A stretch of DNA of 32,747 bases, taken from assembly GCA_947477755.1 (NCBI GenBank), contig CANJVS010000004.1:1-32747 (forward strand), in the 5' to 3' direction. This document shows positions 1,806-22,642 of the stretch, in pieces. How positions within the stretch are numbered: the first letter of the stretch is position 1; every line of letters begins with the position of its first letter. The notes below the pieces were generated by a model. It saw only the letters and a list, made by a program, of their open reading frames with translations. It was not told where the DNA came from and made no database searches. Source of the DNA: Verrucomicrobiaceae bacterium (GTDB taxonomy: Bacteria; Verrucomicrobiota; Verrucomicrobiia; Verrucomicrobiales; Verrucomicrobiaceae). A program made the translations under genes and the position numbers.

Positions 1806-2042
1806 TCAGGCTGACTGAGGATGTGAGGCATCACGCTTTTGTGTGGTCAGCCAGAGCCTCACGGCTGCTAGGTCAAACCTGACCATGTCGCCTATCTCGA
1901 AGGCAGGCAGGCCGCGCCTGCGCAGGTTGAAGATGTGCCGTTCCGAGCAGCCGAGGTATTGAGACAGGCGGCCCGTGGTGATCAAATCTCCCGGCGGATC
2001 GCCGCCGGAGTTGAATAGAGTGCTTGGTGATGTTTGATTCAT
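1806..2042 (-). CDS. Excisionase-type (MerR-like) helix-turn-helix protein
   Basis: 78 aa; 'LITTGRLSQYLGCSERHIFNLRRRGLPAFEIGDMVRFDLAAVRLWL' is a typical HTH_17/excisionase pattern. Confidence 0.75.
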   Translation of the reverse strand: MNQTSPSTLFNSGGDPPGDLITTGRLSQYLGCSERHIFNLRRRGLPAFEIGDMVRFDLAAVRLWLTTQKRDASHPQSA

Positions 2043-2147
2043 GATCGCGTTGCGTTGTTGCTTTTGAGGGCGGCACTCGAAATCGAGAGTGCGGCCACGC
2101 GAGAATCATGCGGTGTCAAACCGGGTTTGTCGGCAGTCCTTGGAATA

Positions 2148-2224
2148 CCCTATGCAACCCCACATAGGGCTATGTGAACCCTATGCCGCGCTATGTATGG
2201 GGTATGCATAGGGTTTCCATAGGG
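2148..2224. promoter_or_regulatory. Cluster of CCCTATG/CATAGGG heptamers (possible operator or iteron array)
   Basis: Exact copies at 2148-2154 (+), 2163-2169 (-), 2179-2185 (+), 2207-2213 (-), 2218-2224 (-), plus near copies (GGCTATGTG, GGGTATGC). Lies between the divergent HTH gene and the ATPase operon. Confidence 0.6.
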
Positions 2225-2297
2225 TTAGCAAACTCATGTTGGGTTGCGCCCGCTTTGAAGTGACTGTGATAGCCTTGCTGAATAGGATAGCACCTGT

Positions 2298-4187
2298 ATG
2301 AACACCCATCCTTCCTCCCACCGCATCAAGCGCCTCCAGGTCACTGGCGGCTTTCTCATCGGCCTCGACATCAGCTTTCACGACGGACTCAACTGCATCA
2401 TCGGTCCAAGGGGCACAGGCAAGAGCAGCGTGCTGGAACTGGTGCGCTACAGCCTGGACATCATGCCGGGCCGGGAAGGTGATCCGCTGCGCAAGCGGAT
2501 CACCTCCGTGATCGAGAATAACCTCGGCGGAGGGCGTGTTGAATTGACAATCGAAACCAAGGACGGCCTCACCTATGTTGTAAGCCGCGCCGCAGGCGAG
2601 GATTCCATCCTGCTTGATCCTGACCGCAAACCGCTTTCGGTGGAATTTTCATCCCAGTTGTTCGGGGCCGATGTGTATTCGCAGAATCAGATCGAGAGCA
2701 TCGCCGAGACGCCGCACTACCAGCTCGATCTCATCGACGGTTTCGAGCAGGAGAAGCTCAATACCATCCACCATCGCCTTGAGGCGACGCTGCGCGAACT
2801 GCGCGCCAGCGCTGGGCAAATCCTGCCGCTGATGACGGAGAAGGAAACGCTGGAGGCTGCTCTCTCACAGATCGACATGATCAAGGAGAAGCTCAAGGGG
2901 TTTGCCGCTGTCGAAGGCGAGGATTCTGAGGAGGTCAACCGGGCGCACCTGCTCAAGTCGCTGCGCGACAGGGAGAACAAGGCGCTCGCTTACGCCAGCG
3001 ACGCCACCACCCAACAGGCCGATGCCATCAAGGATCTGATGGGGCGATGTGAGGCCAGCGTGCTGGCGTTCTTCTCACCGGACGTGCTCACTGGACCCAA
3101 CGGCGCAATCATCACCGACGCCGTGGCCAGCCTGCGCACCGCGATCCGCAGTTCGGAAAAGGCGCTTGCCACGGCCGCACAATCTCTGGACGCGGTTCTG
3201 CTTGAACTGACGCGGGCTAGGGGAATCATCGAACAGGCTCACGTTCCCCAGGAGCTGGCCTTCCACGCGATCATCGAGAAGCAGCAGCAAAACCAGACGC
3301 AGTCGGTTGAGCGCGCAAAACTCGAAAAGCAGCAGAACGACCTGCTCTTCAAACAGCGCCGCCATGAGGAGGTGGTTTCCCAGCTCAGAAATCTCAAGAG
3401 CCGTCGTGACGAACTGCTCGCGCGACTCTCCGATGAACGCGACATGCGATTCAAAGTCCGCGACTCCGTTGCAGAGCGTCTCAGCACCCGGCTCAAGCCG
3501 AACATCCGTGTGAGCATCGCACAAAACGCCGATCCGGACGACTACCGCAAGTTTCTCGAAAACAATCTGCGCGGACTGGGCATCCAGCACAACCGGGTCG
3601 CCACCACCATCAGCAAGGCCATATCGCCGCAGGAGCTTGGTGAACTGGTACAGGCAGGCGAGCCCGCATCGCTAGCCCGTCGAAGCGGCATCAACGCGCA
3701 GCAGGCAGGCAGCGTGATCAAGGCGTTCAACTCGGAGGAAAGGCTGATGGATCTGCAGATTCTGGACATGGATGACCAGCCGAGCATTGAGCTGTGCGAC
3801 AACGGGGTTTACAAACCGTCCACCGGATTGTCCACAGGGCAAAAATGCACCGCAATCCTTCCTCTACTCATGTTCGACCGCGTCAACCCGCTGCTGATAG
3901 ACCAGCCCGAGGACAACCTCGACAACTGCTACGTCTATGAAACAATCGTGAACAGCGTCAACGACGTGAAGCGCATGCGCCAGCTCATCTTCGTCACCCA
4001 CAATCCCAACATCCCAGTGCTCGGAGACGCCTCGAGGGTGTTCGTCATGCAGTCCGATGGCCGGACGGGCAGCGTCAAAGTTGAAGGCGACGTGGACCGT
4101 TGCCGGGACGATATTATCAATCTGCTTGAGGGGGGTGAGAAGGCCTTCGATCTGCGCACCGAGCGCTATAAAACCGCCCAGCCATGA
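2298..4187 (+). CDS. SMC/RecF-like AAA (ABC-type) ATPase with coiled coil
   Basis: Walker A 'GPRGTGKSS', signature 'LSTGQKC', Walker B 'PLLIDQPEDNLD', H-loop 'FVTHNPN'; coiled-coil middle. Confidence 0.85.
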   Translation: MNTHPSSHRIKRLQVTGGFLIGLDISFHDGLNCIIGPRGTGKSSVLELVRYSLDIMPGREGDPLRKRITSVIENNLGGGRVELTIETKDGLTYVVSRAAGEDSILLDPDRKPLSVEFSSQLFGADVYSQNQIESIAETPHYQLDLIDGFEQEKLNTIHHRLEATLRELRASAGQILPLMTEKETLEAALSQIDMIKEKLKGFAAVEGEDSEEVNRAHLLKSLRDRENKALAYASDATTQQADAIKDLMGRCEASVLAFFSPDVLTGPNGAIITDAVASLRTAIRSSEKALATAAQSLDAVLLELTRARGIIEQAHVPQELAFHAIIEKQQQNQTQSVERAKLEKQQNDLLFKQRRHEEVVSQLRNLKSRRDELLARLSDERDMRFKVRDSVAERLSTRLKPNIRVSIAQNADPDDYRKFLENNLRGLGIQHNRVATTISKAISPQELGELVQAGEPASLARRSGINAQQAGSVIKAFNSEERLMDLQILDMDDQPSIELCDNGVYKPSTGLSTGQKCTAILPLLMFDRVNPLLIDQPEDNLDNCYVYETIVNSVNDVKRMRQLIFVTHNPNIPVLGDASRVFVMQSDGRTGSVKVEGDVDRCRDDIINLLEGGEKAFDLRTERYKTAQP

Positions 4188-5269
4188 GCACGCCCGACGA
4201 CCCGCCCGCAGTCTCCTGGACGACTCGCCGCAAGCAGGCGGAGGAGCAGTGTGCCGCACTGCTGCTGCGACCAGACGAGGAGGTTGCGGGTGAGGTTGTC
4301 AGGCTTGCGAACGATCCCAAATGGGAAGTGCGCAAGGTCGTGGCAGAGAGTATGGCGGCGTTCCCTGAAAAGGTGTTCCGGGAACTCTCCATTCTCTTTG
4401 CCTCCGAGCGCAACGCGCTGGTGGCGGCCGCGTTTGAGCGTTCGCTCGCACGCCGCAGTCCAGTGGCTGACATTGCCCCGGCCCATGCCGACCTACTGCA
4501 GGGCGAGGTCGCCAAGATCACTCACAAGTTCGGCCCCGATGCCGCAGATGCCGCCCTCAAATTCGCCGAACGCTGCACGTTTCTGCACATCCGGTCGGCG
4601 GGGCACGACCTGAAGAACATCCTCAGCTACCTCAAGCTTGATCCGGATGCGCTCATCAAGGAGCCAGCCAATGCAAAGCACAAAAGCAAAATCCAACGCT
4701 ACAAGAATGGCCGGGATTACCTCCACCGTCTGTCGGAGATGATGGAAGTTTACTCCAGCCCGCTCGATATCAGGATGCAGCCGGAGGATTTGGTCGAGAT
4801 GGCATTTGAAGCCATCACGGCCGCCCGCGAACAAGTGGAGAAGGGTGGCGTGGATTCAACGTCAGTGGCATGTGACGTCGAGGCACCGGAGTCTGTCATT
4901 GTTCCAGTTTCGCGCTATCACATTGCGATGGCGCTGACGAACCTGGTGAAGAATGGTATTCAGGCCTACGCCTTGCCCGACTCCAAGTTCGGCGAGGGCA
5001 GAGTGTTGATCCGCATCATCAAGGATGCTGAGTGCGTGACCATCACGGTGGCAGATGGCGGTTGTGGTGTTGCTCCCGGTGATTTGCAGAATCTGGTGCA
5101 GTTCATTCCCGGCGGCACGGCAAAGCGCGGTGGATCTGGCTACGGGCTTCCGATCTGCCGCAGGTATTTGCAGGCGCATGGCGGGCAGATATGGCTCGAA
5201 AGCACGAAGAACAAGGGAATGACCGTCACGGTCACGATTCCCTGCAACACCTGCGATGCGGTTTTATGA
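4184..5269 (+). CDS. Soluble histidine kinase with HEAT-like N-terminal region
   Basis: H-box 'GHDLKNIL', N-box 'ALTNLVKNGIQAY', G1 'VADGGCGV', G2 'GGSGYGLPICRRYLQAHGG'. N-terminal 'VVRLANDPKWEVRKVVAESMAAFPEKVFREL' is HEAT-like. ATGA overlap with the preceding gene. Confidence 0.85.
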   Translation: MSTPDDPPAVSWTTRRKQAEEQCAALLLRPDEEVAGEVVRLANDPKWEVRKVVAESMAAFPEKVFRELSILFASERNALVAAAFERSLARRSPVADIAPAHADLLQGEVAKITHKFGPDAADAALKFAERCTFLHIRSAGHDLKNILSYLKLDPDALIKEPANAKHKSKIQRYKNGRDYLHRLSEMMEVYSSPLDIRMQPEDLVEMAFEAITAAREQVEKGGVDSTSVACDVEAPESVIVPVSRYHIAMALTNLVKNGIQAYALPDSKFGEGRVLIRIIKDAECVTITVADGGCGVAPGDLQNLVQFIPGGTAKRGGSGYGLPICRRYLQAHGGQIWLESTKNKGMTVTVTIPCNTCDAVL

Positions 5270-6264
5270 TTAGAATACTTGTCATCGACGACCAGGATGA
5301 TGTTCGCGACGAGCTTCGCGAGCGGATCGCATCCATGAACTATGAATCCGATGAGGCGGCCTCGCAGGAGCAGGCGCTCGAAAAACTGAGCGATCTTGCT
5401 TATGATCTCGTGCTGCTTGACCTGAAATTACCCCTGAGTTTTGGGGGCGTGACCCGCATGGAACATGGGCGCAACCTGCTGCAAAGAATTGTGGCGATGC
5501 CTGCGGCCCCTCCCGTGATCGTCATTACCTCGCACTATGGTCCTCAGGGACACAAGCTTGCGACGGAGATGATTCACCTGGGAGCGGCCAGTTTTGTGGG
5601 CAAGCCTTTCGACGACGATCCGCCCGAGCCAAAAATCGAGATGGTGCTTGCCCGCAGGAAGACCCGCGCAAAGGAAGCCGAGAAAAAGGAAGAAACCTTC
5701 TCGGGTGGAGTGCTGCTCCTGCACGATGACGGCATCGAGTTGTGCGGTTTTGTTGTGGGGGGGATACGAGGCAACGCCATCATCCGCCGCGTCGTTGAAA
5801 TGCTTGCCCAGCGGACGAACGGCAAGCTGCGCAAGGCATCTGCCCAGGTCTTGGCGGATGCGCTTTCAAAATCCGTCACGGCGGCCACCGTGACCAGCGC
5901 CATCAACGAGTTTCGCTCCCAATGCTCCGAGAAGCTCGCCCATGCCGGCATCAAGTGTGACAGGAACGACGTCATCCTCACTGTGAAGGGCGGCGGGTAT
6001 CAGTTTGCCCCCGGGATTGAGGTGCGTGTGGGTAATGAAGAGTTGCCGGCATCGCAGGTCGAACAAGACTGCGAGCTGCTCTTGAAGCAGTTCCGCCGGC
6101 GCGGCAAGATGACGGTCAAGCAAGCGCGCGAGTCGGTTGATATTCCGGCTACGAGAGTGAAGACGGCCCACGCGGCGCTGATGGAACGCAAAATGATTGA
6201 TATTGTTAGCGGCAGTGGGAGCACGACCACCTACATGCTGATCAAAGCCGAGATGCCAGCCTAG
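5266..6264 (+). CDS. Response regulator with winged-helix (OmpR-like) output and extra C-terminal HTH
   Basis: Receiver 'MIRILVIDDQDDVRDEL...DLVLLDLKLP...VIVITSH...FVGKPF'; 'DVILTVKGGGYQFAP' resembles the OmpR-type wing; C-terminal 'MTVKQARESVDIPATRVKTAHAALMERKMI' is HTH-like. ATGA overlap with the kinase gene; the 5191 start in the ORF track is an upstream extension. Confidence 0.85.
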   Translation: MIRILVIDDQDDVRDELRERIASMNYESDEAASQEQALEKLSDLAYDLVLLDLKLPLSFGGVTRMEHGRNLLQRIVAMPAAPPVIVITSHYGPQGHKLATEMIHLGAASFVGKPFDDDPPEPKIEMVLARRKTRAKEAEKKEETFSGGVLLLHDDGIELCGFVVGGIRGNAIIRRVVEMLAQRTNGKLRKASAQVLADALSKSVTAATVTSAINEFRSQCSEKLAHAGIKCDRNDVILTVKGGGYQFAPGIEVRVGNEELPASQVEQDCELLLKQFRRRGKMTVKQARESVDIPATRVKTAHAALMERKMIDIVSGSGSTTTYMLIKAEMPA

Positions 6265-6281
6265 AAAGAAATGATGCAGAA

Positions 6282-7862
6282 ATGAAGACGAAACCGCTCG
6301 CCCTGATTGGGGATGACAATTTTTGCGTTCGCGAGGCGGTGGAGGACCGCGTTGCCGAACTTGAGCATGACTTTCATTCCGTGGGATCACAGCATGAAGC
6401 AGCCGAAGCCCCACCCATTCCTGTCGAGGTTGATGTCCTGAGCTTTTCCAAACTCTTTGAGGACTCAGCCTTTCCGATGGCGGTGGACACCTATCAAAGG
6501 GGCTTCGTCTGGAACGACGACAAGATCCGCCAGTTGAAAGATGATTTGGCAGCCTATCAGCGCGATGCCGACCCGAAGCCGCCCTACTACATGGGCACGA
6601 TCTTGGTCCACCGGAACAAGGACAAGCTGAAGCACTTCATCATCGACGGCCAGCAGCGGCTCACGGCGCTGTGTGTGCTCCACCAGCAACTAAAGGGTAG
6701 CTTGCCCGGCAAATGTGCGCTGACCTATTCACCGAAATCGGCGCGGCGCATCCGTGCGGCGGCCGGGATTTTCGAAGAGCCGCTCTCCCGCCCGACTGCC
6801 GCCATCTTCGGGCAGATTGTCTTCACGGTCATCTGCGTGGAGCGGGTGGATTTGGCATTCACGTTCTTCGACACGCAGAACAACCGGGGCGTGCCGCTTC
6901 ATGCCACGGACCTGCTCAAGGCTTACCACCTCCGCGAGGTGAAGGGCGAACCGGATTCCCGCAAGGAAGCAATGCAAACCCTCTGCGCCCGGCGATGGGA
7001 AAGCATCCAGCAAGGGACGCCGGTGATGTCGCACGATCAGGAGTTTGACCACTCCTTGTTTACCAAGTTTCTCTGGCGGGCTCGCTACTGGAACGGCGCT
7101 CGCGTGACGATCGGTAATCACGACGCGCTGATGGAGGAGTTCCAAAAGCAAACGTGGCGGATGGAGGGCAAGCCGGACACCATCCCGCTTTACCGCTCCC
7201 GCCACAATCGCTTGGGCACGGCCCTATCGCTGACGAAGGACGGGCACAGTGAGATCCACACCAACCGGATTTCCCTCAGTCCCAAGGCCGAGGATTTGCC
7301 CTTCGCCATCCGACAGCCGATCCATAAGGGCATCGGCTTCTTCCTCTATGCCGACAAATATGCCTCGCTGCTGCGCAACCTGGTGACCAATGCGACGGAT
7401 TCCGGTGAAGTCGCGCGATTCCGCGAGGTTTACGAGAAGCTAATTATGGCGAACTCACTCTTTCTGCGGGAGATTTTTCTCCTCTCGTCGCTGATGTATG
7501 TGGATCAGTTTGGGGATGAGAAGCTGTGGGAGTTTTCTCTGTGGATGGAACACGCCCTCGGTGCGATCCGACTGGAAAAGCAGCAGGTGCGTTACGAAGC
7601 GGCGCAGAACTTTTTCAAACAGGACACCTTGAACCTACTGGATGTCATCGCGAGCGGCTACCGACCGGAGCAGGTCATTGCTCATTTGAAAAGCCACCAC
7701 ACGCGGCGTGCGATATACGCGGACGAGAAGATCGAGACAGGGAAAGGCGTGCAGGGCATCTACAAGACAGCGGTGCTGTGCTATTACGGTCGTGCGGAAC
7801 TTGCGTCGTTGAGTGGCAAGCATGCATGGATCGCGGACAAGTTGAACGGAGGTGCGGCATGA
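6282..7862 (+). CDS. DUF262-domain protein (GmrSD/BrxU-like, first of a pair)
   Basis: 'PMAVDTYQRGFVWNDDKIRQLKDDL' and 'FIIDGQQRLTALCVLHQQ' (DGQQR motif), 'TFFDTQNNRGVPLHATDLLKAY'. No clear DUF1524 HxxP motif at the C terminus. Confidence 0.8.
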   Translation: MKTKPLALIGDDNFCVREAVEDRVAELEHDFHSVGSQHEAAEAPPIPVEVDVLSFSKLFEDSAFPMAVDTYQRGFVWNDDKIRQLKDDLAAYQRDADPKPPYYMGTILVHRNKDKLKHFIIDGQQRLTALCVLHQQLKGSLPGKCALTYSPKSARRIRAAAGIFEEPLSRPTAAIFGQIVFTVICVERVDLAFTFFDTQNNRGVPLHATDLLKAYHLREVKGEPDSRKEAMQTLCARRWESIQQGTPVMSHDQEFDHSLFTKFLWRARYWNGARVTIGNHDALMEEFQKQTWRMEGKPDTIPLYRSRHNRLGTALSLTKDGHSEIHTNRISLSPKAEDLPFAIRQPIHKGIGFFLYADKYASLLRNLVTNATDSGEVARFREVYEKLIMANSLFLREIFLLSSLMYVDQFGDEKLWEFSLWMEHALGAIRLEKQQVRYEAAQNFFKQDTLNLLDVIASGYRPEQVIAHLKSHHTRRAIYADEKIETGKGVQGIYKTAVLCYYGRAELASLSGKHAWIADKLNGGAA

Positions 7863-9820
7863 AGATCGCATCCAAACTCTACAGTCTGGCCGAACTCGTG
7901 AAGGAAAGCCCGGACTGGCATTTCAACATCCCGATCTACCAGCGGCTCTACGTGTGGGGCGAGGACCAGGTGCTAACGCTCTTGAACGATCTCGTGAACG
8001 CTTATGAGCGCCGTGAAGAGTTGTTTTTCCTCGGCGGAACACTGCTGGTCGAGCAGGAGGGCAGCAAGGGGCGGCACTTCGATCTCATCGACGGGCAGCA
8101 ACGATTCACGACGCTATGGCTGCTCAGCCATGCCTGGAGCAAGGCATTGAAGCCATTTCTTACCGTCACGACCGATAAATTTACCGAGCCGCGTCTCCGA
8201 TTCGCGATACGCCCCGAGGTGAACCAATTTCTGGAAACGCTGGCCTTGGGTGATCGTGGACAACCCATGCCTGATGAGGAGGCGACCAAACGGATGCGCA
8301 CGGCGCTCGATCTGATGATGTCGGTGTTCGCGAAGCGGCTACTGCCCGCTGGGGTGAGTGATCAAGCGGCGCATATCGCGGGATTGACGGAGTTTGTTTT
8401 CGGCAAGGTGAAGTTTGTCGTCACGACCGTTCCCCGTGAGACCGACCTGAATAAATTGTTCGAGGTGATCAACAATCGAGGGGTGCAACTCCAGCACCAT
8501 GAGATTCTCAAGGCGCGAATGCTGGATGCGCTGACAGAAGTCGAACGCGGCCCTTTTGCTGTCATGTGGGAAGCGTGCGCTGACATGGAGAACTTCATCG
8601 AGCGTAACCTGAGTGGTATCTCGGGACTGTCGGCCAGTGAGGTGACCGCGTTCTATGAACAGGGTGAATTGGCGAATGCGCCCATTGTGCGGACCAAGCT
8701 GCAAGGACGGATGCAGGGCCAGAGCGACCATCATGCGATGGCACTGGAAGAAATCCTGAAATCGGTAGAAGAATCGCCAGCATCCGAATCCGCCGCCAAG
8801 GATGACGACGCCGATCCCACATGGGTCCGGAGCATCTTCGGCTTCCCGTTGCTCCTCCAGCACACGCTGCGGATTTGGCTGTTGGAAAACGAGCGCGCTG
8901 ACCTGCCGCGATTGCTCGACCGCGAGCTGCTAGAACTATTCGAGGCACACTTTTTTCAGGACACGGACACGCGTGCTGAGAACGTGCGGTCGTTCATTGA
9001 TTTGCTCTGGCGACTGCGCGTAATCTTCGACGAGCACATCATCAAGTGGGCCGACCAAGGCGAAGAGGAAATCCACCTGATCAGCACGATCAGCGTAAGC
9101 ACAAGCAGCGGGAAGCGCTATATGAGCCGGTCGCGACAAACCGATTCACACCGGGCCATTTCGCTTCTCCAAAGCATGCTCTATCACTCGCAGGAAATCA
9201 CGACGCAATATTGGGTGACGCCGCTGCTCCTGTTCATGCACCAAAATCCCGGCGAGAAGGCGGAGCGGTATTTCGCCTACCTGCGCCACCTCGACAATCA
9301 TCTCCTCGGCTCGGCTGCCGATGACTCCTTGGTGGTGCGGACGCTGGCGTTCATGAAAGACCCGTGGCAATGCCGCGCCCTAATACATCAGACGGAATTG
9401 ACCAACGCGAGCGGGGTCAAGTTTGCCCACTACTGGTTTTACAAGCTGGAGTTCGTCCTATGGTTTCAGGAAAAGAGGGCCGATGAGAGATGGAAGAAAT
9501 TCCGGCTCACCGCCAAAAGTTCGGTTGAGCATATCTCTCCCCAGACTCCAACCGAGCGGGACGACAACCGAGTCGATCAAGCGCTCGATCACTTTGGCAA
9601 CCTGGCACTCGTTTCCCGCAGCCTGAACTCCGAATATGGAAACATGCCTTACAACGAGAAGCAGCGAAGATTTATTAACAGCAACAAGAGCCGCGTCGAC
9701 TCGCTGAAAATGGACCTGATTTATGTTAACGAGCAGTGGAACGACACGAAGGCTTTCGCCCATCAGCAAGAGATGATCGATTGCTTGGAAAGCTACTGTG
9801 CCGACACGCCGAAAGAGTAA
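7859..9820 (+). CDS. DUF262 + DUF1524-like (HNH) protein (GmrSD/BrxU-like, second of a pair)
   Basis: ATG at 7859 overlaps the previous stop (ATGA). 'FNIPIYQRLYVWGEDQVLTLLNDL', 'LIDGQQRFTTLWLL', 'FEVINNRGVQLQHHEILKARML'; C-terminal 'SVEHISPQTP...LDHFGNLALVSRSLNSEYGN'. Confidence 0.85.
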   Translation: MKIASKLYSLAELVKESPDWHFNIPIYQRLYVWGEDQVLTLLNDLVNAYERREELFFLGGTLLVEQEGSKGRHFDLIDGQQRFTTLWLLSHAWSKALKPFLTVTTDKFTEPRLRFAIRPEVNQFLETLALGDRGQPMPDEEATKRMRTALDLMMSVFAKRLLPAGVSDQAAHIAGLTEFVFGKVKFVVTTVPRETDLNKLFEVINNRGVQLQHHEILKARMLDALTEVERGPFAVMWEACADMENFIERNLSGISGLSASEVTAFYEQGELANAPIVRTKLQGRMQGQSDHHAMALEEILKSVEESPASESAAKDDDADPTWVRSIFGFPLLLQHTLRIWLLENERADLPRLLDRELLELFEAHFFQDTDTRAENVRSFIDLLWRLRVIFDEHIIKWADQGEEEIHLISTISVSTSSGKRYMSRSRQTDSHRAISLLQSMLYHSQEITTQYWVTPLLLFMHQNPGEKAERYFAYLRHLDNHLLGSAADDSLVVRTLAFMKDPWQCRALIHQTELTNASGVKFAHYWFYKLEFVLWFQEKRADERWKKFRLTAKSSVEHISPQTPTERDDNRVDQALDHFGNLALVSRSLNSEYGNMPYNEKQRRFINSNKSRVDSLKMDLIYVNEQWNDTKAFAHQQEMIDCLESYCADTPKE

Positions 9821-9825: not shown

Positions 9826-9975
9826 ATGGCTGAGATCCCACGCTCCGAACGAAAGACGCAGAACCGCGTCATCGCCCTGTTTATCGACAAGGCACGAATC
9901 GATTGCCTCGGCGAGTGGAACAAGCGGGAGCACCTAGCATTACCGATTTCAATTCTGCCATCCGAAGCCTATTGA
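9826..9975 (+). pseudogene. Truncated N-terminus of type I restriction R subunit (HsdR-like remnant)
   Basis: MAEIPRSERKTQNRVIALFIDKARIDCLGEWNKREHLALPISILPSEAY*: the 'SERxTQNRVIALF...LGxWxxRE' motif is characteristic of HsdR N-termini; terminates after 49 codons. Confidence 0.6.
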
Positions 9976-10079: not shown

Positions 10080-11558
10080 CTACGCCGGGTTTTCTGTGCG
10101 CAGTTGGAACGTGTAAACGACGTTCGAGAACTCATCGGGCAAGATCACTGCCAATTGGTCAGTGACTCGCTTTCGCATTTCCACGGCGAATTCGAGGACC
10201 CATTCGAGTTCCTCGCGCTTGAGGCTCTCTGGCGAACGGCGGTGGGGGTAGAGGAGCTTGAGAAGACCAGCAGCCGTTTTCTTCACTGCATCCTGGTTGC
10301 GCCCAGTCATGCCGCCGAAATCGGCCCAGTAGTTGACGTGAGTCTGGTAGTTGAGCCGCCGCAGTTCGGCGAAAATCTCAGCGAGGTAATCGGTCAGAAA
10401 GCCGTAGCCGGTGGCGTAGTTTTCAGGCCGAATCTTCGGAACTTCCCAACCCGGCAAATAGGCATGGATGCGATCCAGGAAAGCAGGATCTTGAAGTTCC
10501 GGCGGAAGGACGGAAAAGAGATGTTTGTAGTGGGTCGCCGCAGTTTTCCTTTCGAGGTCGGTGTCGATGTTGCCACCAAGAACAATTGAGCAAGGCGCAG
10601 AGAACTCCTGGTCACCTCTGCTGAACTTGCCGGTCTGCATGTAGTCCTTGAGCACACTGATGCTTGCCTCCGCATCGTCGAAGTTCGTGTGTGCGATTTC
10701 ATCAAAGAACACGAGATGCTTCAGTCCGATGACCCCGAGCTTTCGCGTGGCCTTGTTGTAAAAAAGCGTGGCGGGCGTCGCCTTGCCACCGGACACGACG
10801 AAACCGCGATTCGATGTGTTTCGGAAGGTGTAGGTCTTGCCAGTCTCGCGCGGCCCGAGTTCGATGAGGTTGTAGTTTGCCTCGACGAACGGAACCATGC
10901 GCAAAAGTAAGAGCATCTTCGTGCGCCGATCAAATCGAGCGGGATCGAAGCCGATTGACTGGATGAGCAGGTCGAGCCATTCGTCGTCGGTGAATAGCGA
11001 GCGCTTTTCGATGAAATCATCGAGGTTCAGCCTTGAGTATTGCAGCGGCGTGAACTCGCGTATGTAAAACGGATATTTGCGGCTCTTGATTTCGTAGGTC
11101 GCGTCATACTCGATCTCCATTGTGCCCCATGCACCGCTCGTGAGCAGCAGATCGCTGTAGCTAGCCAGGACATTCGCTGAGACGCGCACGGTATCATCGC
11201 CAAGCGCCGGAACATTCGCCCAATAGTGGTCTTTCGCCTGGTCGAGACGGACAGTGAGCTGGCCGATGAGCGTGTATTGGCCTTTCTCTTTGATTCGGCT
11301 CTTGATGAGTTCCTTCTTGGCGCTCTCCGCATAGTGCTCGGTGAGAATTCGGTCGATCTTGTGCTGTCCCGTCACCGGGTCTTCCGGTTTCACGTAGCGG
11401 CTGACGAGATACTCCATCACGTAGCGAGGGAACTCCTTGTATGCCTCATTCCATCGCGTGAGCGGCTTGAGGATCACGCGGTCGCCAAGGTGTTCGAGAA
11501 TCTTCGCATCAAGCGCATTCGCGGCGGAGGGGCCGTTGGTTGTAGAAGTGTCAGGCAT
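10080..11558 (-). CDS. brxL: BREX Lon-like protein BrxL
   Basis: 'NLIELGPRETGKTYTFRN', 'LVFFDEIAHTNFDDAEASISVLKDYMQTGKFSRG', 'SIVLGGNID', 'LPGWEVPKIRPENYATGYGFLTDYLAEI'. The ORF track start (11567) is a TTG; ATG at 11558. Confidence 0.88.
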   Translation of the reverse strand: MPDTSTTNGPSAANALDAKILEHLGDRVILKPLTRWNEAYKEFPRYVMEYLVSRYVKPEDPVTGQHKIDRILTEHYAESAKKELIKSRIKEKGQYTLIGQLTVRLDQAKDHYWANVPALGDDTVRVSANVLASYSDLLLTSGAWGTMEIEYDATYEIKSRKYPFYIREFTPLQYSRLNLDDFIEKRSLFTDDEWLDLLIQSIGFDPARFDRRTKMLLLLRMVPFVEANYNLIELGPRETGKTYTFRNTSNRGFVVSGGKATPATLFYNKATRKLGVIGLKHLVFFDEIAHTNFDDAEASISVLKDYMQTGKFSRGDQEFSAPCSIVLGGNIDTDLERKTAATHYKHLFSVLPPELQDPAFLDRIHAYLPGWEVPKIRPENYATGYGFLTDYLAEIFAELRRLNYQTHVNYWADFGGMTGRNQDAVKKTAAGLLKLLYPHRRSPESLKREELEWVLEFAVEMRKRVTDQLAVILPDEFSNVVYTFQLRTENPA

Positions 11559-11563
11559 GTGGA

Positions 11564-14365
11564 TCAAATGTTATCGAGACTGGCGAGCGCGTCTGTATCG
11601 AGTTTCGTCGGCTTTGGCTTGACATGCACAGGCACAGTGACTTGGCCGCCAGCAGGTTCGCGCATCTCGCCTGTGAGCGTTGTGTGGCGGAGACGGAAGG
11701 AAACAGCGCGCAATGTTGCGGATGGGTCCACTTCCCGCGCTGTTGTGAGCTTGTATCGACCCAGCAATTTGATACTGAACTTCTTCGCTTCGCCGGGCGG
11801 GAGCGTGCCTTTGTCGCGGAGCAATTCTTCGCCGAGATTCGTTCGCGCCTCGACGAAGTATTCCACGGGCACCGTGCCACGGTTCTGAATTTGAAAACCA
11901 ACATCCTGGGCCTGATCCTCTGGAATTTCGAGAGTGTCCGGCAATCCTTCGAGGGTCGCGCGGGCGGACTTGGACGAGACACGTTTGAGCGCGACTGCGG
12001 GCACCACCATCTCAGCAAGCGAGACCCCACCGTGCGAGTAGCGCGTCGGCTGTTTCGTGTTGTCGCGGCAGAACCAACGGCGACCAACCGCGAGTGCGTG
12101 CGGCTCGCCCCGCACGTTCACCGCAACAGCTCCCGGCGCGGAAGCGGGCTGCAAACCGAGCACATAGCGCCAACGCACATCATCTTTGAGACTGCGCCCG
12201 GCGGTGGCGACTTCTGCGGCGGAGACGGAGACCCCGTCGCCAGCGAGCAACTCGATGAAGCCGTGATCCGAAACAACCACCACGTCATCCGCAGGCTGGA
12301 TGCGACGCAGCAGATCGTCGAGGATTCCTGCCACACCGTGCGCCTTGTTGCCGAGCAGGTCGCTTCGGATTTTTTGATGAAATGCGCCGAGGTCGCCGTG
12401 GAAATCGTGGCAGTCGTCGGAGATGCCGTAGATGAGCACGTTCACGAGCTTTGCCTCGGAATCGGCGCTGGCAAGTTTGGCGCGGGCCTTGAGAGTTTCA
12501 GCATCGGTCAGCAGGCGAAACTTCGTCTTCGCCTCCTGCGCCGTGAGACCAAGGTTTACCGCTGCGAGATTGGCCTCGTTGTCAGTAGGCTGGCCTTGGA
12601 ATCCTTTCCAGTCGGGCGGCGAAGCACCGGCTAGCAGGCTGGTGCGAGCGATGGTGGTGTAGCTCGGAGCGACGCAGAAAACCGGGCGGTCATCGGTTAC
12701 TTCAAAATGCTCCGTGAACAGCGGTCGCACTACCAGCCGCCAAGTGTCGTATCGCATCCCATCGAAGACTAGAATCCACACTCGGCCATCACCGTCACCT
12801 GCGGTAATTTCGTTCACCCGATGTCGCAGGCGTGAGTGGATGTAACCGGTGCTACTCCACGCCCCGGTTGCGAAGGCGTCTGGCGATGGTCGCACCAAAG
12901 CGGCGAGTTTCTCATCAAGCGAGTCGAGTCGAGTCCGCACGCGGTCTTTGAGCGAACCGGGTGAGGGCCTCGTGTCGTCGCCCCCGGAACCGAATGCATG
13001 GGTGTGCAATGCGGAGACCACTTCATCGTCATCAAACTGATGCGCGAGATGCACGATTTGCGCGAGGTCGGTTTCGAGGCGGAAGTAGCCTCCATCGACA
13101 AATAAGCTGAGCAACGCGGCTGGCTGAGTCGCCGGGGCCAGTGGAAGAGCCAGCGTCTGCTCGATGCGCTGCCACTGACAAAGTAGATTTACACCAGCCT
13201 GCGCGCGTCGTGCGGAATCGGCCAGATCGGCCAGACTTGCCTCGGCTGGAGCGGTGGTGCCTGACCAGGCAGAAAGCGCGGCGGTCAGGTCGGCTGGCTG
13301 TGCGAGCACCCGCAGCAGAAGTCTGCGGAGCACAGCGGAGCGCACAGTCACGATGGGCGTGTTGGCCACGAGGTTGGCCAGCGCAGCAGGATCGCCGGTG
13401 GCAGTGCTTGTGAGCGTTAACAGCTTCTCGACACGCTTTGGGCCGAGATAAGGCGCGGCAGCTTCCTCGACGGCGGGCCAGACTCCGGTGGAATTCAACT
13501 CCCGAATGACCTTGGCCGCGAGCGGTTCAAAACGCGACCACTCATAGTCAGCGGGCAGCAGGCCCACACCCGCGAGTTGTGCGGTGGGGTTCTGAAGCTT
13601 TTGCTGACCGGCGAATGCTCGGAGCACGAGGTAGCCAGCGAGGTCTTCCACGGGAGGCGCGAGCCAGAAGATCTGTTCATTGACTCCTGGCAACGCCACG
13701 CCACGCGCGAGATCGAGCACTACGGCGCGGTGCGCCGCAAGTTCGGGGCGAGCGAGGAGGAGACGCAGAACTTGGGCGAAGAAACCGGCGGGCGAATCGC
13801 TCTCCGGCCACACGTCATCGAGCGCGAGGTGCGGCGCGTGGGCAAGCAGCACGAGCGCGGCGACTTGGGGGCGACCCCAATCGTCCGGCTTACCCCATCG
13901 CGCGGTGATCTTTTTGGCTGCGGCGGAAAGCTCCCCGGTTCGAGCAAGGAGTGCGGGCTTGTAGTGGCGGAGCTGCGCGGGTGGAAAATTGATCTGCGGA
14001 CAAAAGCGGCCGAGATACCGCGCAAGCGAAAGGTCGAGCGGCGTGGTGCCCTCGTGACGGGAGAGCACGTCGCCGATGGTTGATACGTCGAGTTTCCTTT
14101 CCGGGTCTGGCGAACCGATAATTACGACAGCCACGCGGCCCTGAGCGGCGGCTTTGCGAAAGGCGAGGCGGAACCGCAAATCATCACCGCGGAAGACGGC
14201 GAGGTGCCACGCTCTTCCGGCGGGATCGGTGACGACGGGTTGGTCGAGCGCACGATCCTCGGCAAGCAGACGGTCGGTGTCGCAGGCCACCACCACACGC
14301 GCACTGTCGGGCTGCTGTTCCAGCCATCGCTCAAAAACGTCGCGGGGTGTGAGCACAGGTGACAT
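11564..14365 (-). CDS. pglZ: BREX alkaline-phosphatase-fold protein PglZ
   Basis: 'RVWILVFDGMRYDTWRLVVRPLF', 'APSYTTIARTSLLAG', 'DDVVVVSDHGFIELL', 'RYSHGGVSLAEMVVPAVAL'. Confidence 0.88.
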   Translation of the reverse strand: MSPVLTPRDVFERWLEQQPDSARVVVACDTDRLLAEDRALDQPVVTDPAGRAWHLAVFRGDDLRFRLAFRKAAAQGRVAVVIIGSPDPERKLDVSTIGDVLSRHEGTTPLDLSLARYLGRFCPQINFPPAQLRHYKPALLARTGELSAAAKKITARWGKPDDWGRPQVAALVLLAHAPHLALDDVWPESDSPAGFFAQVLRLLLARPELAAHRAVVLDLARGVALPGVNEQIFWLAPPVEDLAGYLVLRAFAGQQKLQNPTAQLAGVGLLPADYEWSRFEPLAAKVIRELNSTGVWPAVEEAAAPYLGPKRVEKLLTLTSTATGDPAALANLVANTPIVTVRSAVLRRLLLRVLAQPADLTAALSAWSGTTAPAEASLADLADSARRAQAGVNLLCQWQRIEQTLALPLAPATQPAALLSLFVDGGYFRLETDLAQIVHLAHQFDDDEVVSALHTHAFGSGGDDTRPSPGSLKDRVRTRLDSLDEKLAALVRPSPDAFATGAWSSTGYIHSRLRHRVNEITAGDGDGRVWILVFDGMRYDTWRLVVRPLFTEHFEVTDDRPVFCVAPSYTTIARTSLLAGASPPDWKGFQGQPTDNEANLAAVNLGLTAQEAKTKFRLLTDAETLKARAKLASADSEAKLVNVLIYGISDDCHDFHGDLGAFHQKIRSDLLGNKAHGVAGILDDLLRRIQPADDVVVVSDHGFIELLAGDGVSVSAAEVATAGRSLKDDVRWRYVLGLQPASAPGAVAVNVRGEPHALAVGRRWFCRDNTKQPTRYSHGGVSLAEMVVPAVALKRVSSKSARATLEGLPDTLEIPEDQAQDVGFQIQNRGTVPVEYFVEARTNLGEELLRDKGTLPPGEAKKFSIKLLGRYKLTTAREVDPSATLRAVSFRLRHTTLTGEMREPAGGQVTVPVHVKPKPTKLDTDALASLDNI

Positions 14366-14368
14366 AGG

Positions 14369-17266
14369 TTAGAGATCGAGCACGGTTTGCTTGTCGTCTT
14401 CGACGCGGCGCTTGCTCTTGGGTGTAGCAGCTTCGGTGTCCTCGGCGGCGGCGGCGAGGCGCTGACCGGCGACGCGGACCTGCTTTTGCGCGGCACTTAA
14501 CGTGCCTGGTTCGACGCCATCGGGAATGAGGCGGTGGCTGAGTTTGACGATGAGCTGGTATGCTTCCGTAATGTCAAAGCCGGGGTGAGTCTCGGCGGTC
14601 GCATCGCCCTCTGCGAGTTCCTTGCAGGTGTCGAAGAGCACAGCAATCCACTCGCACAGTTCGCGGCTGTCCGGCGTGCGGCCAAGGGTGCCTGCGGCGA
14701 GACGGTCGGCATCGTGGAGGACACGCAGGGCGCGGTCGTCGTTGATCTTCTCGCGTTCCTCGGGTGTGGGTTCGCGCCAACGGTTGCTCGCTGCATCGCG
14801 CCAGAAATTTTCACGGAGCAGCGTTTCGAGGACGAGAGTCTGCGATAGCGAAGCCGGAAGCAGGCCGGTTGCGCGCATCCAAAACGGCTTGAGTTCGCCG
14901 ATGAGCTTTGGGCCACCATGGAGTTGCTGCCGAAGCCAGGCGATGGCGGTGAGCTCGTTGGAAACGGTCACTTCTTCGGCCACGAGTTCGCCCCCGTTGC
15001 CGCCCACGGCCTCACCGCGAAGATACCAGCGTTGCCCGATCTTTCGGAAGAAGCGTCCGCAGACGCGCTCGATAAAGGGAAGGTTCAGCCGCTCGACGCT
15101 CACCCCCTTGGGGATGAGTGTGTTCATCAACATGGAGTTGATGGTGGCGGTGGTTCGGTGGTCGTCGCTGTATTTAGTCGGCTCGGCGGCGATGCGCTCG
15201 GGTAAAGTCGCCAAATGTTGCCGCACGGCCTCGGCAACCTGCTGCTCCAAGTCGGTGTCCTCCGCGCGCATTTCGCGCCGGAATACAGAAGGTTTGTGGA
15301 GATTGAAAAGAACATCCTTGTCCACCACATCTTCCTCACCGACCGCGCCTTTGAGTTGTTTGAAGGTCTTTTGCTCTTTGTCTAGTAGAAGCATATTGGC
15401 GATTTCAAAGCCAGCGTCGCGGATCGCTTGCTTGATCGCTTCAAAGACACTGCCATCCGAGTTATTGAACTCCACAGTCGTCCACCGTCCCGGTTTGAGA
15501 ACGCGAAAGGCCTCTCGAAATGCTTCGGCCATCAGCCGTGCGTAATCCGGCAGCCGCTTTGTGCCCCCATCATTTTTGCGATGAACTACGGCCTCAAGGG
15601 CAGTCTCGGTTGTTCTTCCAAGCCACACCTCCCAGAGAAGGTTCGGCTCGGAATAGTAGATGTTTGAGCCGAATGGCGGATCGATGAACACGTAGTCCAC
15701 CGACTCATCGGCAACTTCAACTAGAGCGGTGGCGGAACAAACCCGAACAAAAGAGTTGCCGCTAGTGAAGACGCGGTTGGCATGCGTGAAAAAATTTACA
15801 ATATCCTTTTCCTTGGCCGACCACGCCTTCAGCAAATTGTCTTCGCGTGTGATAGACGAAATCGTGAGGTTGTGTGTGTTACCGGCACCGCCGCTTTCGC
15901 GGAACTCCGACTTCCGAGAAACCCGAGCAACAAAGCTCGTAAGCATAAACTGAGCGGCACTTGATAGGCGTGGATCTTCGATGCTTGACGCGTGGTGCCA
16001 CAGCGCGGAAATCGCACGACGGTTCCGCACAGTCCAAAAATCTACGACCTTTTTAATGCCGCGAACACTCAACGCGCTTCGCCTATATTGTGGTCCGTTT
16101 GTGTCCATCGGATCTTCGGGAATCCAATACGGACACTGTCCTCTGTCGATTTCTGCAATGCGCTCTACCTCTCTCGCGCTAATGCGTCGCGCGCAGCGGT
16201 GACGAGCCTCATCGACGCCATGTTTGGTGCGAATAAGCTTCGTGGTCAGTAAGTTAGTCACCACCGGCGATGCGTTGACACGTGAAAGATGGATCTTCTT
16301 CCAGATGGCGCCACAGGATGGACAGGGGAAGTCATCGGTGACTTCACCGGTTATATGATCGCGCGCGGCGTCCCACAGCGAGAAATCTGCCCCGCAGCCT
16401 CTTGCCACACGTGTCTTCCGCACCATTGGTTTCCCCGCATTCTTTCCGCGCGTGCTAATTTTGCCGGTAGGCTCTTCTATCGTAACGAAGCCCTCACACT
16501 TATACACGTCCGACCAGATCGTGTATTGGATGGTCGCCGGAATGCAGACCCATTGTTTAACTTGGCCGAGATCGAGGTCACCCCACGCATCGTCCCGCGG
16601 AAGATTGGTCACGGGATACCCGAGTCTCTCCTCGACTTCCTCACGAGTGAGTAGCTCCCAATTGCGCTCCGTCGCTTCCAGCAGATTGGACGGACCAAGA
16701 CCGCGGGGTGGATTCTTCAAGCGTGCCGCCACATCGGGTTGCGCCGGTTCATAGAGTCCGACCGCAGGTTCGTAGTGCTCGGTTCCGTAAAGCCAGGCGA
16801 ACTCCTCCGCCACCGCAGCGCGAATGCGCTCGAACTCGTGGCGCAGCGCACTGACATCAACGGGAGTGTTGTGGTTGTAAGCGATATGGCAGGCGGCGGG
16901 CGAAAGGTCACTCAGCAGGCAGGCGCGTGGACCGACGCGGTCCTTCAATTCCGGAAACTGCTCGAGCAAGTCAGCCGGCGGCTGGGCGCACATCTGTGCC
17001 GCCACTCCCGTCATCCCCGACCCGCAGAAAACATCGAGAACCAAGTCGCCAGGCCTCGTGTAGTTCAAGATGTAGGGAATGATGCTCCGGGGCGGAACCT
17101 TGGTGTGATAGGAGTGGGCGTTGTAAGTCGGATCGTTCTTGCCTTCCTTAATGTCCGCAGCGAACGGCGGGCGCTCGTAGTCGTCCGTGGCGGGATCGTA
17201 GGGCCGGACGTGCTTTTTAAGGAACGCCGACAGATCAGGAGCGGGTGTGAAAGCTTTGTCGCTCAT
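14369..17266 (-). CDS. Large DNA methyltransferase (N6/N4 methylase; PglX/PglXI-position), BREX-associated
   Basis: Start MSDKAFTPAPDL at 17266. Motif I 'DLVLDVFCGSGMTGVAA', motif IV 'VDYVFIDPPFGSNIYYSEPNLLWE'; internal Cys-containing insertion 'FPCPSCGAIWKKIHL'. The track's 17761 start is an upstream extension into brxC. Confidence 0.85.
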   Translation of the reverse strand: MSDKAFTPAPDLSAFLKKHVRPYDPATDDYERPPFAADIKEGKNDPTYNAHSYHTKVPPRSIIPYILNYTRPGDLVLDVFCGSGMTGVAAQMCAQPPADLLEQFPELKDRVGPRACLLSDLSPAACHIAYNHNTPVDVSALRHEFERIRAAVAEEFAWLYGTEHYEPAVGLYEPAQPDVAARLKNPPRGLGPSNLLEATERNWELLTREEVEERLGYPVTNLPRDDAWGDLDLGQVKQWVCIPATIQYTIWSDVYKCEGFVTIEEPTGKISTRGKNAGKPMVRKTRVARGCGADFSLWDAARDHITGEVTDDFPCPSCGAIWKKIHLSRVNASPVVTNLLTTKLIRTKHGVDEARHRCARRISAREVERIAEIDRGQCPYWIPEDPMDTNGPQYRRSALSVRGIKKVVDFWTVRNRRAISALWHHASSIEDPRLSSAAQFMLTSFVARVSRKSEFRESGGAGNTHNLTISSITREDNLLKAWSAKEKDIVNFFTHANRVFTSGNSFVRVCSATALVEVADESVDYVFIDPPFGSNIYYSEPNLLWEVWLGRTTETALEAVVHRKNDGGTKRLPDYARLMAEAFREAFRVLKPGRWTTVEFNNSDGSVFEAIKQAIRDAGFEIANMLLLDKEQKTFKQLKGAVGEEDVVDKDVLFNLHKPSVFRREMRAEDTDLEQQVAEAVRQHLATLPERIAAEPTKYSDDHRTTATINSMLMNTLIPKGVSVERLNLPFIERVCGRFFRKIGQRWYLRGEAVGGNGGELVAEEVTVSNELTAIAWLRQQLHGGPKLIGELKPFWMRATGLLPASLSQTLVLETLLRENFWRDAASNRWREPTPEEREKINDDRALRVLHDADRLAAGTLGRTPDSRELCEWIAVLFDTCKELAEGDATAETHPGFDITEAYQLIVKLSHRLIPDGVEPGTLSAAQKQVRVAGQRLAAAAEDTEAATPKSKRRVEDDKQTVLDL

Positions 17267-17270
17267 GCGC

Positions 17271-21344: not shown

Positions 21345-21347
21345 GAT

Positions 21348-21824
21348 TCAGACGGTTGAAAAACAGTTCTTCGCGAGATCAGATCGGTCGAAGTAGTTAA
21401 CAATGGCGCGCGGATGGCACTCGATTTCGGAAGGAAGATCAAGTTTTTCCGGGGTGCCTTCGATCAATAGCACCGCCAATCCACGGTCACCACAAAACCA
21501 GTCAAAGAATTCCCTCAATCCGAGGTTGTAGCGCACGAGTAGGCCCGCAGATTTTACGACCAGAATGCGACGTTGCCCGATGGAAGGGGCAATCGAGACG
21601 AGCTTTTCTCGCAATGCATGGCGAAAGAAATGGATCACGTCGTCTTCGCTGTCAGGGAGGCTGGATTCATCGAACAGGTCGAGGAGGTCGAGGTCAACAG
21701 TGGAAACGCCTGAAACGGCGAGAATTGCGGAGTTCAGGGCCGACTCCGGGCCGAGCCAAAGCGCGACATCTTTGTCCCAAGTCCGCTGCGACGCGAAGCG
21801 TGTAAATTCTGCTGCGGATTTCAC
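21348..21824 (-). CDS. Small BREX-associated protein (BrxF- or BrxB-like, Walker A not evident)
   Basis: Between brxA-like and brxC-like genes; 'QRRILVVKSAGLLVRYNLGLREFFDWFCGDRGLAVLLIEG' resembles the sensor strand of BrxF/BrxB-type proteins. GTG at 21824 overlaps the upstream stop (GTGA); an alternative ATG lies at 21866. Confidence 0.5.
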   Translation of the reverse strand: MKSAAEFTRFASQRTWDKDVALWLGPESALNSAILAVSGVSTVDLDLLDLFDESSLPDSEDDVIHFFRHALREKLVSIAPSIGQRRILVVKSAGLLVRYNLGLREFFDWFCGDRGLAVLLIEGTPEKLDLPSEIECHPRAIVNYFDRSDLAKNCFSTV

Positions 21825-22642
21825 GATGGCACTCCCTCCTTTAGCAAATCGGAAAGAGTCCGGCATGTCGTGACCTGCTCCAGCCGGTCAGCGACCACGT
21901 ATTTTCCAAGAGAACCGGCATGAACGGCCTCCTTGAGAAAATCGCGGAATTCATCTTCGGATCGGATTCCAATGAATCGCCAGAACGGGTTGGCAACAAG
22001 CGTCCCGAACTCAATGCTGCGTTGTGTATCGACATTGAACGCGTGATGCAGCGCGAGGATCAACGCCACCTTGTTAGCCGGGGGTGAGACGACCCGATCA
22101 CCGGTCGAGGTCCGCTCCAAAAACCCGAGTTTCCTGAGATTCGAGAGCAGTCGTTTTTTTGTCTGAACACTCAACTCGTGGCCCGTCAGCTTCGCCGTGG
22201 CCCCAGCGAGGTAGTCACCTGGGACAAGCACACCCTCTGAGAGCTTGGAAATGACTGAAGCCACGCAGGTTCCCACGATTGGCTCTGCCGACAGATAGAG
22301 ATAGCGGTTGATTGCGATCTGGATGTCGTTGCTTTGAAACCGTTTCCATACCGTCGAGGCAAATCCAGAGAGGCCATCCCGAAAAAACCATCGGATCAGG
22401 GAATCAACATACCGGCGGCGAGTGCCTTCGCTGTTTTGAGGAAGGGCGGATGCGATTCTGTCTCTGAGTTCCGCAATGTCCTGCGATTCCTGAGCCAGAC
22501 GCACTGCGAGCAGCGATTCTTTGAGCAGAACCTCCTGAAGAGTGTGTTGCGTTCTGTTATAAATTCGCGGCAGATCAAGGGAATCCCCACCCCGGCTAAG
22601 GACGGGTTTTGTTGAGAATAGTTCCTCTTGGGTGTGGGGCAT
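21821..22642 (-). CDS. BrxA-like (DUF1819-like) protein
   Basis: 273 aa, first gene of the operon; 'TRRRYVDSLIRWFFRDGL...AINRYLYLSAEPIVGTCVASVISKLSEG...LLSNLRKLGFLER' fits a helical/winged BrxA-type protein. Confidence 0.6.
   Translation of the reverse strand: MPHTQEELFSTKPVLSRGGDSLDLPRIYNRTQHTLQEVLLKESLLAVRLAQESQDIAELRDRIASALPQNSEGTRRRYVDSLIRWFFRDGLSGFASTVWKRFQSNDIQIAINRYLYLSAEPIVGTCVASVISKLSEGVLVPGDYLAGATAKLTGHELSVQTKKRLLSNLRKLGFLERTSTGDRVVSPPANKVALILALHHAFNVDTQRSIEFGTLVANPFWRFIGIRSEDEFRDFLKEAVHAGSLGKYVVADRLEQVTTCRTLSDLLKEGVPS

What the first reader, a model, noticed from the sequence alone, without database searches (positions are those of the whole stretch)
2298..9820. Five-gene operon linking an SMC-like ATPase and a two-component pair to two DUF262 nuclease-like proteins
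Genes 1-2, 2-3 and 4-5 overlap by ATGA, and genes 3-4 are separated by only 17 nt, so ATPase, kinase, response regulator and the two DUF262 proteins look co-translated. DUF262/DUF1524 proteins are established type IV restriction effectors (GmrSD, BrxU), and SMC/RecF-like ATPases are common defence sensors. I know of no named system combining these with a histidine kinase and a DNA-binding response regulator. The hypothesis is a phosphorelay-gated restriction or abortive-infection module.
Basis: partly seen in the sequence, partly recalled or inferred. Interest (0 to 1): 0.82.

Follow-up and report, generated by a model that had tools for sequence, protein, structure and literature searches.

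The report
Sensor-ATPase phosphorelay beside stranded restriction genes
The five adjacent genes are real, but they are two separate systems joined by recombination: a widespread, unnamed three-gene signalling unit (a DNA-repair-like ATPase, a histidine kinase and a DNA-binding response regulator) and a known kind of two-gene restriction enzyme left over from a damaged type I restriction locus.

Summary
The anatomy is as described: ATPase 2298-4187, histidine kinase 4184-5269, response regulator 5266-6264, DUF262 genes 6282-7862 and 7859-9820, with three ATGA overlaps and one 17-nt gap. The "five-gene system" is not supported. In loci collected by ATPase similarity alone, the ATPase is followed by the kinase in 75 of 78 and by the regulator in 71 of 73 with enough sequence; only the window adds a DUF262 pair to an intact triad. 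Conversely, the DUF262 pair recurs alone or inside type I RM operons and matches TgvAB in layout. The window carries scars: gene 4 begins with about 40 codons of a second, single-domain response regulator that sister operons carry; a short hsdR stub remains after gene 5; a BREX-like cassette replaces the rest. The triad (PHP-less TrlF-like ATPase, soluble kinase, OmpR-fold regulator) has near-invariant phosphorelay residues and a promoter array of CCCTATG repeats whose inverted-pair form occurs nowhere else in two genomes. It often lies near defence genes. Best reading: an intracellular sensor ATPase driving a self-regulating phosphorelay, probably defence-linked, with no name in the libraries and papers searched; in the window it probably drives captured TgvAB-like genes. 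No function was tested.

The parts
1806..2042 (-). 78-aa small protein, by its sequence probably a helix-turn-helix/excisionase-like protein, divergent to the triad; edge of a mobile-element block (PD-(D/E)XK protein 135-971, ssDNA-binding-like protein 1002-1736)
   Evidence: ORF; parts of the 99-1981 block are 80-93% identical at nucleotide level beside other triads (L020, L021, L023, L024, L027); PDDEXK_1; the HTH and ssDNA-binding labels are my reading of the sequence
2147..2225 (.). Array of five CCCTATG/CATAGGG sites: proposed operator of the response regulator
   Evidence: Sites at 2148, 2163, 2179, 2207, 2218, only one other copy in 32.7 kb; same motif x4 upstream of the triad in L019; CCCTATGN{4,34}CATAGGG occurs only at the triad promoter in G000 and G049, reversed control 0; 4 copies of one 8-mer here, reached in 0 of 200 shuffles
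2298..4187 (+). Triad gene 1: PHP-less TrlF-like SMC/Rad50-type ATPase (629 aa)
   Evidence: NCBIfam TrlF_fam_ATP 284.6 bits over model 291-944, Ppl_antiphage 110 bits; Walker A, signature, Walker B and switch His conserved in 71-75 of 75 homologues, gaps from truncated copies aside
4184..5269 (+). Triad gene 2: soluble histidine kinase with N-terminal helical repeats (361 aa)
   Evidence: HATPase_c 5.7e-20; AF2 pLDDT 89, PDB matches ZraS and HK853, helical repeats 12-116; H141 and N257 in 74/74
5266..6264 (+). Triad gene 3: response regulator RR1, receiver + OmpR-type winged helix + second C-terminal winged helix (332 aa)
   Evidence: Response_reg 4.4e-17; AF2 pLDDT 92; top full-length PDB matches are OmpR/PhoB-family regulators, several DNA-bound; D9 and D52 in 71/71
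6282..7862 (+). Gene 4: TgvA-like protein (GmrSD_N + DUF7834), fused in frame to a receiver fragment
   Evidence: full-length homologue in L054 between hsdS and a TgvB-like gene
6282..6401 (+). 5' part of gene 4: remnant of RR2, a single-domain response regulator that follows RR1 in sister operons
   Evidence: 6279-6400 is 92% identical to RR2 of L056, 84% to L073 and 87% to L052; in L056 and L073 RR2 follows RR1 with an overlap
7859..9820 (+). Gene 5: TgvB-like protein (GmrSD_N + GmrSD_C His-Me nuclease)
   Evidence: full-length homologue in L054; last 47 residues 85% identical in L053, where hsdR follows
9826..9975 (+). hsdR stub: start of a type I restriction subunit cut off by the BREX-like cassette
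   Evidence: MAEIPRSERKTQNRVIALF... against L053 hsdR MPEIPRSERKTQNRVIALF... (HSDR_N); nucleotide match 9677-9891 to L053 1-215 at 86%
10080..22642 (-). BREX-like cassette (brxL, pglZ-like, methyltransferase, large ATPase, two small genes) replacing hsdR and ygjP of the ancestral type I RM locus
   Evidence: BrxL 9.7e-147, PglZ 1.8e-12, N6_N4_Mtase; L053 goes hsdR-ygjP-orf172 where the window goes hsdR stub-cassette-orf172
22828..23346 (+). 172-aa ORF marking the far flank of the ancestral type I RM locus
   Evidence: 22826-23346 is 90% identical to L053 3995-4515, directly after ygjP

Best explanation
Two independent units are juxtaposed. Unit 1 (2147-6264) is a conserved three-gene signalling operon. 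An SMC/Rad50-type ATPase, related to TrlF and Ppl but lacking their PHP domain, acts as an intracellular sensor, most likely of foreign or aberrant DNA (inferred from family). It signals to a soluble histidine kinase, perhaps through the kinase's helical-repeat domain (inferred from near-complete gene linkage). The kinase autophosphorylates H141 and phosphorylates D52 of RR1 (residues shown invariant, reaction inferred). RR1 binds the CCCTATG array at its own promoter and switches operon expression (array and its uniqueness shown, binding inferred). The ancestral operon of this lineage probably also had RR2, a stand-alone receiver, now truncated. Unit 2 (6282-9820) is a TgvAB-like two-protein restriction enzyme of the modification-dependent kind (activity inferred) that was embedded in a type I RM operon. 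Recombination removed hsdM and hsdS and fused the DUF262 gene in frame to the RR2 start codon, and a BREX-like cassette replaced hsdR. As a result the pair is probably transcribed, and its first gene translated, under the triad's signals in this strain only.
For: Triad conserved without DUF262: kinase 75/78, regulator 71/73 in loci found by the ATPase, plus relatives, in Verrucomicrobiota, Planctomycetota, Myxococcota and others; three copies, plus an ATPase fragment at a contig end, in the window's own genome. Pair conserved without triad: the two genes are adjacent in all loci where the contig extends, with HsdM/HsdS or HsdR nearby in L054, L186 and L053. Scars: RR2 fragment at 84-92% nucleotide identity, hsdR stub, cassette swap relative to L053. 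Phosphorelay residues near-invariant; structures. Operator array genome-unique in two genomes of 3.5 and 8 Mb. Defence setting: type I methyltransferases and nucleases, DrmA/DrmD, HmaA, BrxHI/II among 93 neighbours, 355 PADLOC models hit against 69 for 93 random proteins; divergent WYL regulators beside four Verrucomicrobiota triads. TgvAB precedent: PMC11411939.
Against: No expression, binding or phage data. The signal sensed by the ATPase is unknown, and its contact with the kinase is inferred from linkage only. The operator motif is clear only in the window's clade; other clades show different repeats, some palindromic (TGATACCGGTATCA), which could belong to another regulator, and most deeper triads show no repeat array by this test (13 of 71 with an 8-mer repeated three or more times, against 17 of 342 control promoters). 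The random control proteins come from a different taxon mix. The genome is a fragmented, about half-complete assembly, so the RR2-DUF262 join has not been checked in a second genome. Many triads have no obvious effector nearby.
Confidence: 0.62

Rival explanations
1. One reading: the five genes are one dedicated phosphorelay-gated restriction or abortive-infection system.
For: Tight spacing and overlaps; intact phosphorelay residues; no terminator-like site at the 6264-6282 gap.
Against: No second example in over 70 triad loci; the pair lives alone or in type I RM loci; recombination scars at both ends of the pair; the receiver fragment in gene 4 lacks the phospho-acceptor Asp.
Confidence: 0.07
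2. The triad is a regulator of the mobile element that carries it: the ATPase senses DNA damage or replication intermediates, and the kinase and regulator control excision, replication or transfer, with defence genes only as cargo.
For: In several Verrucomicrobiota loci the triad sits beside the same replication/recombination block, and serine-recombinase family genes recur near triads (cluster in 12 loci; Pfam Recombinase in 5 of 93 neighbours). Precedent: RteA/RteB of CTnDOT (PMC1976400). The only operator found is the triad's own promoter.
Against: The element block is absent from most triad loci, including L019, and triads persist across phyla with changing flanks; in G000 and G049 no operator pair was found elsewhere, though single sites would be missed.
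Confidence: 0.25
3. The triad is a transcriptional controller of neighbouring defence operons (BREX, DISARM, type I RM).
For: Frequent defence neighbours; precedent of a two-component pair controlling CRISPR-Cas (PMC8523701).
Against: No CCCTATG cluster at the BREX-like promoter or before the DUF262 genes in the window, and the inverted pair is unique to the triad promoter in the searched assemblies; neighbours differ from locus to locus.
Confidence: 0.12

Closest known systems
[quoted passage not shown] cholerae VPI-2 (PMC11411939)
   Same: Genes 4-5 have the same order and architecture: a DUF262-only protein followed by a DUF262-DUF1524 protein; DGQQR-type motifs kept; relatives embedded in type I RM operons.
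   Different: hsdM and hsdS are lost, hsdR is a stub, and the first protein starts with a receiver fragment; activity on hypermodified phage DNA not tested; no direct sequence comparison with TgvA/TgvB was made.
TrlF and Ppl PHP-ATPases (NCBIfam NF045780, NF042955)
   Same: Gene 1 aligns end to end with the ATPase part of TrlF; weaker similarity to Ppl at the C-terminus.
   Different: No PHP part; score below the family cut-offs; paired with a kinase and regulator instead.
Detocs
   Same: Two-component proteins in a defence setting (from memory; no paper on it was read here).
   Different: As I recall it, Detocs ends in an enzymatic effector fused to a receiver; here the regulator output is a DNA-binding OmpR-type domain, and an SMC-like ATPase is added.
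RteA/RteB of CTnDOT (PMC1976400)
   Same: A two-component pair carried on mobile DNA.
   Different: No SMC-like ATPase partner mentioned in the passages read; acts on tetracycline exposure to control excision and transfer genes.
PpoS/PpoR of Marinomonas (PMC8523701)
   Same: Histidine kinase and regulator contributing to phage resistance.
   Different: BarA/UvrY-like regulators controlling CRISPR-Cas; no ATPase partner in the abstract read.

Membership tests
TgvAB-like type IV restriction (GmrSD family) | Two adjacent genes: DUF262 without DUF1524, then DUF262 + DUF1524 | tested here: met
   the same two-gene order in L054, L186-L192, L194
TgvAB-like type IV restriction (GmrSD family) | QR, DGQQR and FxxxN motifs in both proteins and a His-Me H...N motif in the second | tested here: met
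   Read in translations: YQR, IIDGQQR, FFDTQNN in P0004; YQR, LIDGQQR, FEVINN, SVEH and GNLALVSRSLN in P0005 (motif definitions from PMC11411939)
TgvAB-like type IV restriction (GmrSD family) | Embedded in a type I RM operon | tested here: inconclusive
   Relatives L054, L053 and L186 are; in the window only an hsdR stub remains
TgvAB-like type IV restriction (GmrSD family) | Restricts phages with hypermodified cytosines, both proteins needed | not testable with these tools
   Needs phage assays
TrlF family (NF045780) | Score above the curated cut-off of 350 bits, including the N-terminal part of the model | tested here: not met
   284.6 bits, model positions 1-290 not matched
Detocs | Receiver-linked enzymatic effector (recalled, not read) | tested here: not met
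   RR1 output domains are winged helices by AF2 and fold search; no effector-type hit for RR1 beyond receiver-domain matches
Canonical two-component system | Phospho-accepting His and N/G boxes in kinase; DD, D, T, K in receiver | tested here: met
   H141 74/74, N257 74/74, D52 71/71, T88 69/71, K113 70/71
Known named defence system containing this kinase | Kinase matches a PADLOC model | tested here: not met
   0 PADLOC families for P0002 at E<=0.01; no paper in the searched library describes the combination

The most novel reading that the evidence does not exclude
The triad is an unnamed phage- or plasmid-sensing signalling system in which the PHP output of a TrlF/Ppl-type DNA-sensing ATPase has been replaced by a His-Asp phosphorelay and a self-inducing transcription factor, so that DNA sensing raises expression of whatever defence gene has been captured downstream; the window shows such a capture in the act.
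Probability: 0.3. Interest if true: 0.82.

Novelty: new variant of a known kind. Interest (0 to 1): 0.6.

Why it matters
SMC-like sensor ATPases in bacterial immunity usually work with an enzyme, often a nuclease (general knowledge). A strictly conserved coupling of such an ATPase to a two-component relay with transcriptional output would be a different signalling logic, and it can be tested with one operator, one phospho-acceptor Asp and one kinase His. The window also shows how defence genes may come under new control: an in-frame fusion to the start of a regulator gene, and a BREX-like cassette swapped for hsdR.

Tried and rejected
Five genes as one system: rejected on co-occurrence. RR1 as controller of the BREX-like cluster: no operator cluster there. 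Receiver fragment as a phospho-switch on gene 4: rejected, since only the first ~40 residues remain and the acceptor Asp is gone. Assignment of other clades' palindromic repeats to RR: left open. Sigma-70 promoter scan: nothing above shuffled expectation. Regulator relatives on plasmids: none found; the best ATPase relatives on plasmids are TrlF-like at about 30% identity, and those on phages are partial. L107 (broken ATPase followed by a GmrSD gene) was considered as a second example but lacks kinase and regulator.
Full report
WHAT IS THERE. The five ORFs are intact and on one strand: ATPase 2298-4187, histidine kinase 4184-5269, response regulator 5266-6264, DUF262 protein 6282-7862, DUF262-DUF1524 protein 7859-9820. 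Pfam and NCBIfam confirm the domains. Gene 1 aligns with positions 291-944 of the 944-position TrlF model, so it is the ATPase part without the N-terminal (PHP) part, and it scores below the family cut-off. A BREX-like cluster lies on the opposite strand at 10080-22642.

THE TRIAD IS A UNIT. A scan of genome contigs with the ATPase alignment alone returned 80 loci. After removing duplicates and adding the window and the relatives fetched earlier, the kinase follows in 75 of 78 loci and the regulator in 71 of 73 that have enough sequence; one kinase counted as missing (L131) is present but split. The relatives fetched earlier were found by the kinase, so they add a slight bias; the 80 loci were not selected on kinase or regulator. 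The loci come from Verrucomicrobiota, Planctomycetota, Myxococcota and a few others. The window's own genome holds two further triads, at C29 and C202, and an ATPase fragment at the end of C121. In the phylum the ATPase is patchy: 8 of 390 genomes. Catalytic residues are invariant or nearly so in all three proteins. The kinase model (pLDDT 89) matches ZraS and HK853 and has an N-terminal helical-repeat region; no membrane-domain family was hit. The regulator model (pLDDT 92) matches OmpR/PhoB-family regulators, several bound to DNA, and has an extra winged helix at its C-terminus.

THE DUF262 PAIR IS A DIFFERENT UNIT. Only the window has DUF262 genes after an intact triad. A phylum search with the DUF7834 domain of gene 4 gave ten more genomes; in the loci fetched, the two DUF262 genes are adjacent wherever the contig extends, and neither kinase nor regulator is near. 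In L054 they follow hsdM and hsdS, in L186 hsdR follows about 1.2 kb later, and in L053 the C-terminus of gene 5 runs into hsdR, ygjP and a 172-aa ORF. This is the layout of TgvAB, a two-protein type IV restriction system embedded in a type I RM operon (PMC11411939); DUF262 proteins in type I loci are also known as RloF (PMC4619093).

SCARS. Window 6279-6400, the start of gene 4, is 92% identical to the start of a second regulator gene (RR2) that follows RR1 in L056, 84% to that of L073 and 87% to a copy without a triad in L052. RR2 is a single receiver of 136 residues in L052; the L056 copy is itself disrupted and the L073 copy reaches the contig end. Gene 4 keeps only its first ~40 residues and continues in frame into the DUF262 domain. 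After gene 5, 9826-9975 encodes the start of HsdR and then stops. Relative to L053, everything between there and the 172-aa ORF at 22828 has been replaced by the BREX-like cassette. So hsdM, hsdS and most of hsdR are gone, while the TgvAB-like pair is intact and now sits downstream of the triad's promoter and on RR2's start codon.

OPERATOR. Upstream of the triad are five CCCTATG/CATAGGG sites in 77 nt, with one other copy in the 32.7-kb window. L019, from another family of the order, with an ATPase 51% identical and different flanks, has four copies in the same place; L121 has two exact copies and several near ones. The pattern CCCTATGN{4,34}CATAGGG occurs only at the triad promoter in both G000 and G049, and the reversed control is absent. 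I infer that RR1 binds there and regulates its own operon. Other clades have other repeats (CATATGGG, CCGGTATCA); 13 of 71 triad promoters have an 8-mer present three or more times against 17 of 342 control promoters, but some of these repeats are palindromes that could belong to another regulator.

SETTING. PADLOC hits among 93 proteins near triads include type I methyltransferases and nucleases, type III nucleases, DrmA/DrmD, HmaA and BrxHI/II, and 355 models in all, against 69 models for 93 random proteins from genomes of the window's order. The control differs in taxa and total length and both sets contain spurious ORFs, so this is indicative only. WYL regulators are divergent neighbours of four Verrucomicrobiota triads and lie near three others tested. 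Serine-recombinase family genes recur near triads.

MECHANISM. Shown: linkage, intact phosphorelay residues, predicted DNA-binding fold, unique promoter array, scars. Inferred: the ATPase senses DNA or a related infection signal, passes it to the kinase, and phosphorylated RR1 adjusts expression of its own operon; in this strain that includes the TgvAB-like pair. The main rival is that the triad regulates the mobile element itself, as RteA/RteB do for CTnDOT (PMC1976400). Two-component control of immunity has a precedent in PpoS/PpoR (PMC8523701).

NOVELTY. No PADLOC model matches the kinase, and the open-access searches found no description of this combination. Subscription papers and preprints were not searched, so "unnamed" means not found here. 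I score the triad as a new variant of a known kind, and the five-gene claim as not supported.

Noticed in passing
window 10080-22642: The BREX-like cluster is divergent: BrxL is clear, PglZ weak, and the large ATPase and the two small upstream genes match no Pfam family; brxL stands where type 3 BREX would have a helicase (the last point from memory).
   Followed up: partly
window 23376-26786: RNase H-like + superfamily-1-helicase-like protein with PADLOC MkoA similarity; a homologue (1809 bits) sits two genes after a triad in L025.
   Followed up: partly
window 99-1981: Replication/recombination block with 80-93% nucleotide identity beside several triads, suggesting a family of mobile elements with a fixed cargo site.
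   Followed up: partly
L166-L169: Four Verrucomicrobiota triads each have a divergently transcribed WYL-WCX regulator directly upstream.
   Followed up: partly
L056, L073, L052: RR2, a single-domain receiver, follows RR1 in sister operons L056 and L073, and lies next to type I RM genes in L052 and L056; it may be a recombination hotspot or a phosphate sink.
   Followed up: partly
L185 1-7635: A TrlF-like protein of about 943 aa lies upstream of a TgvAB-like pair without kinase or regulator.
   Followed up: no
L107 8893-12976: A broken triad-type ATPase followed by a single-chain GmrSD protein, no kinase or regulator.
   Followed up: partly
window 27757-29468: P63C-domain protein and, by its sequence, a truncated IS1595-type transposase next to the island.
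   Followed up: no
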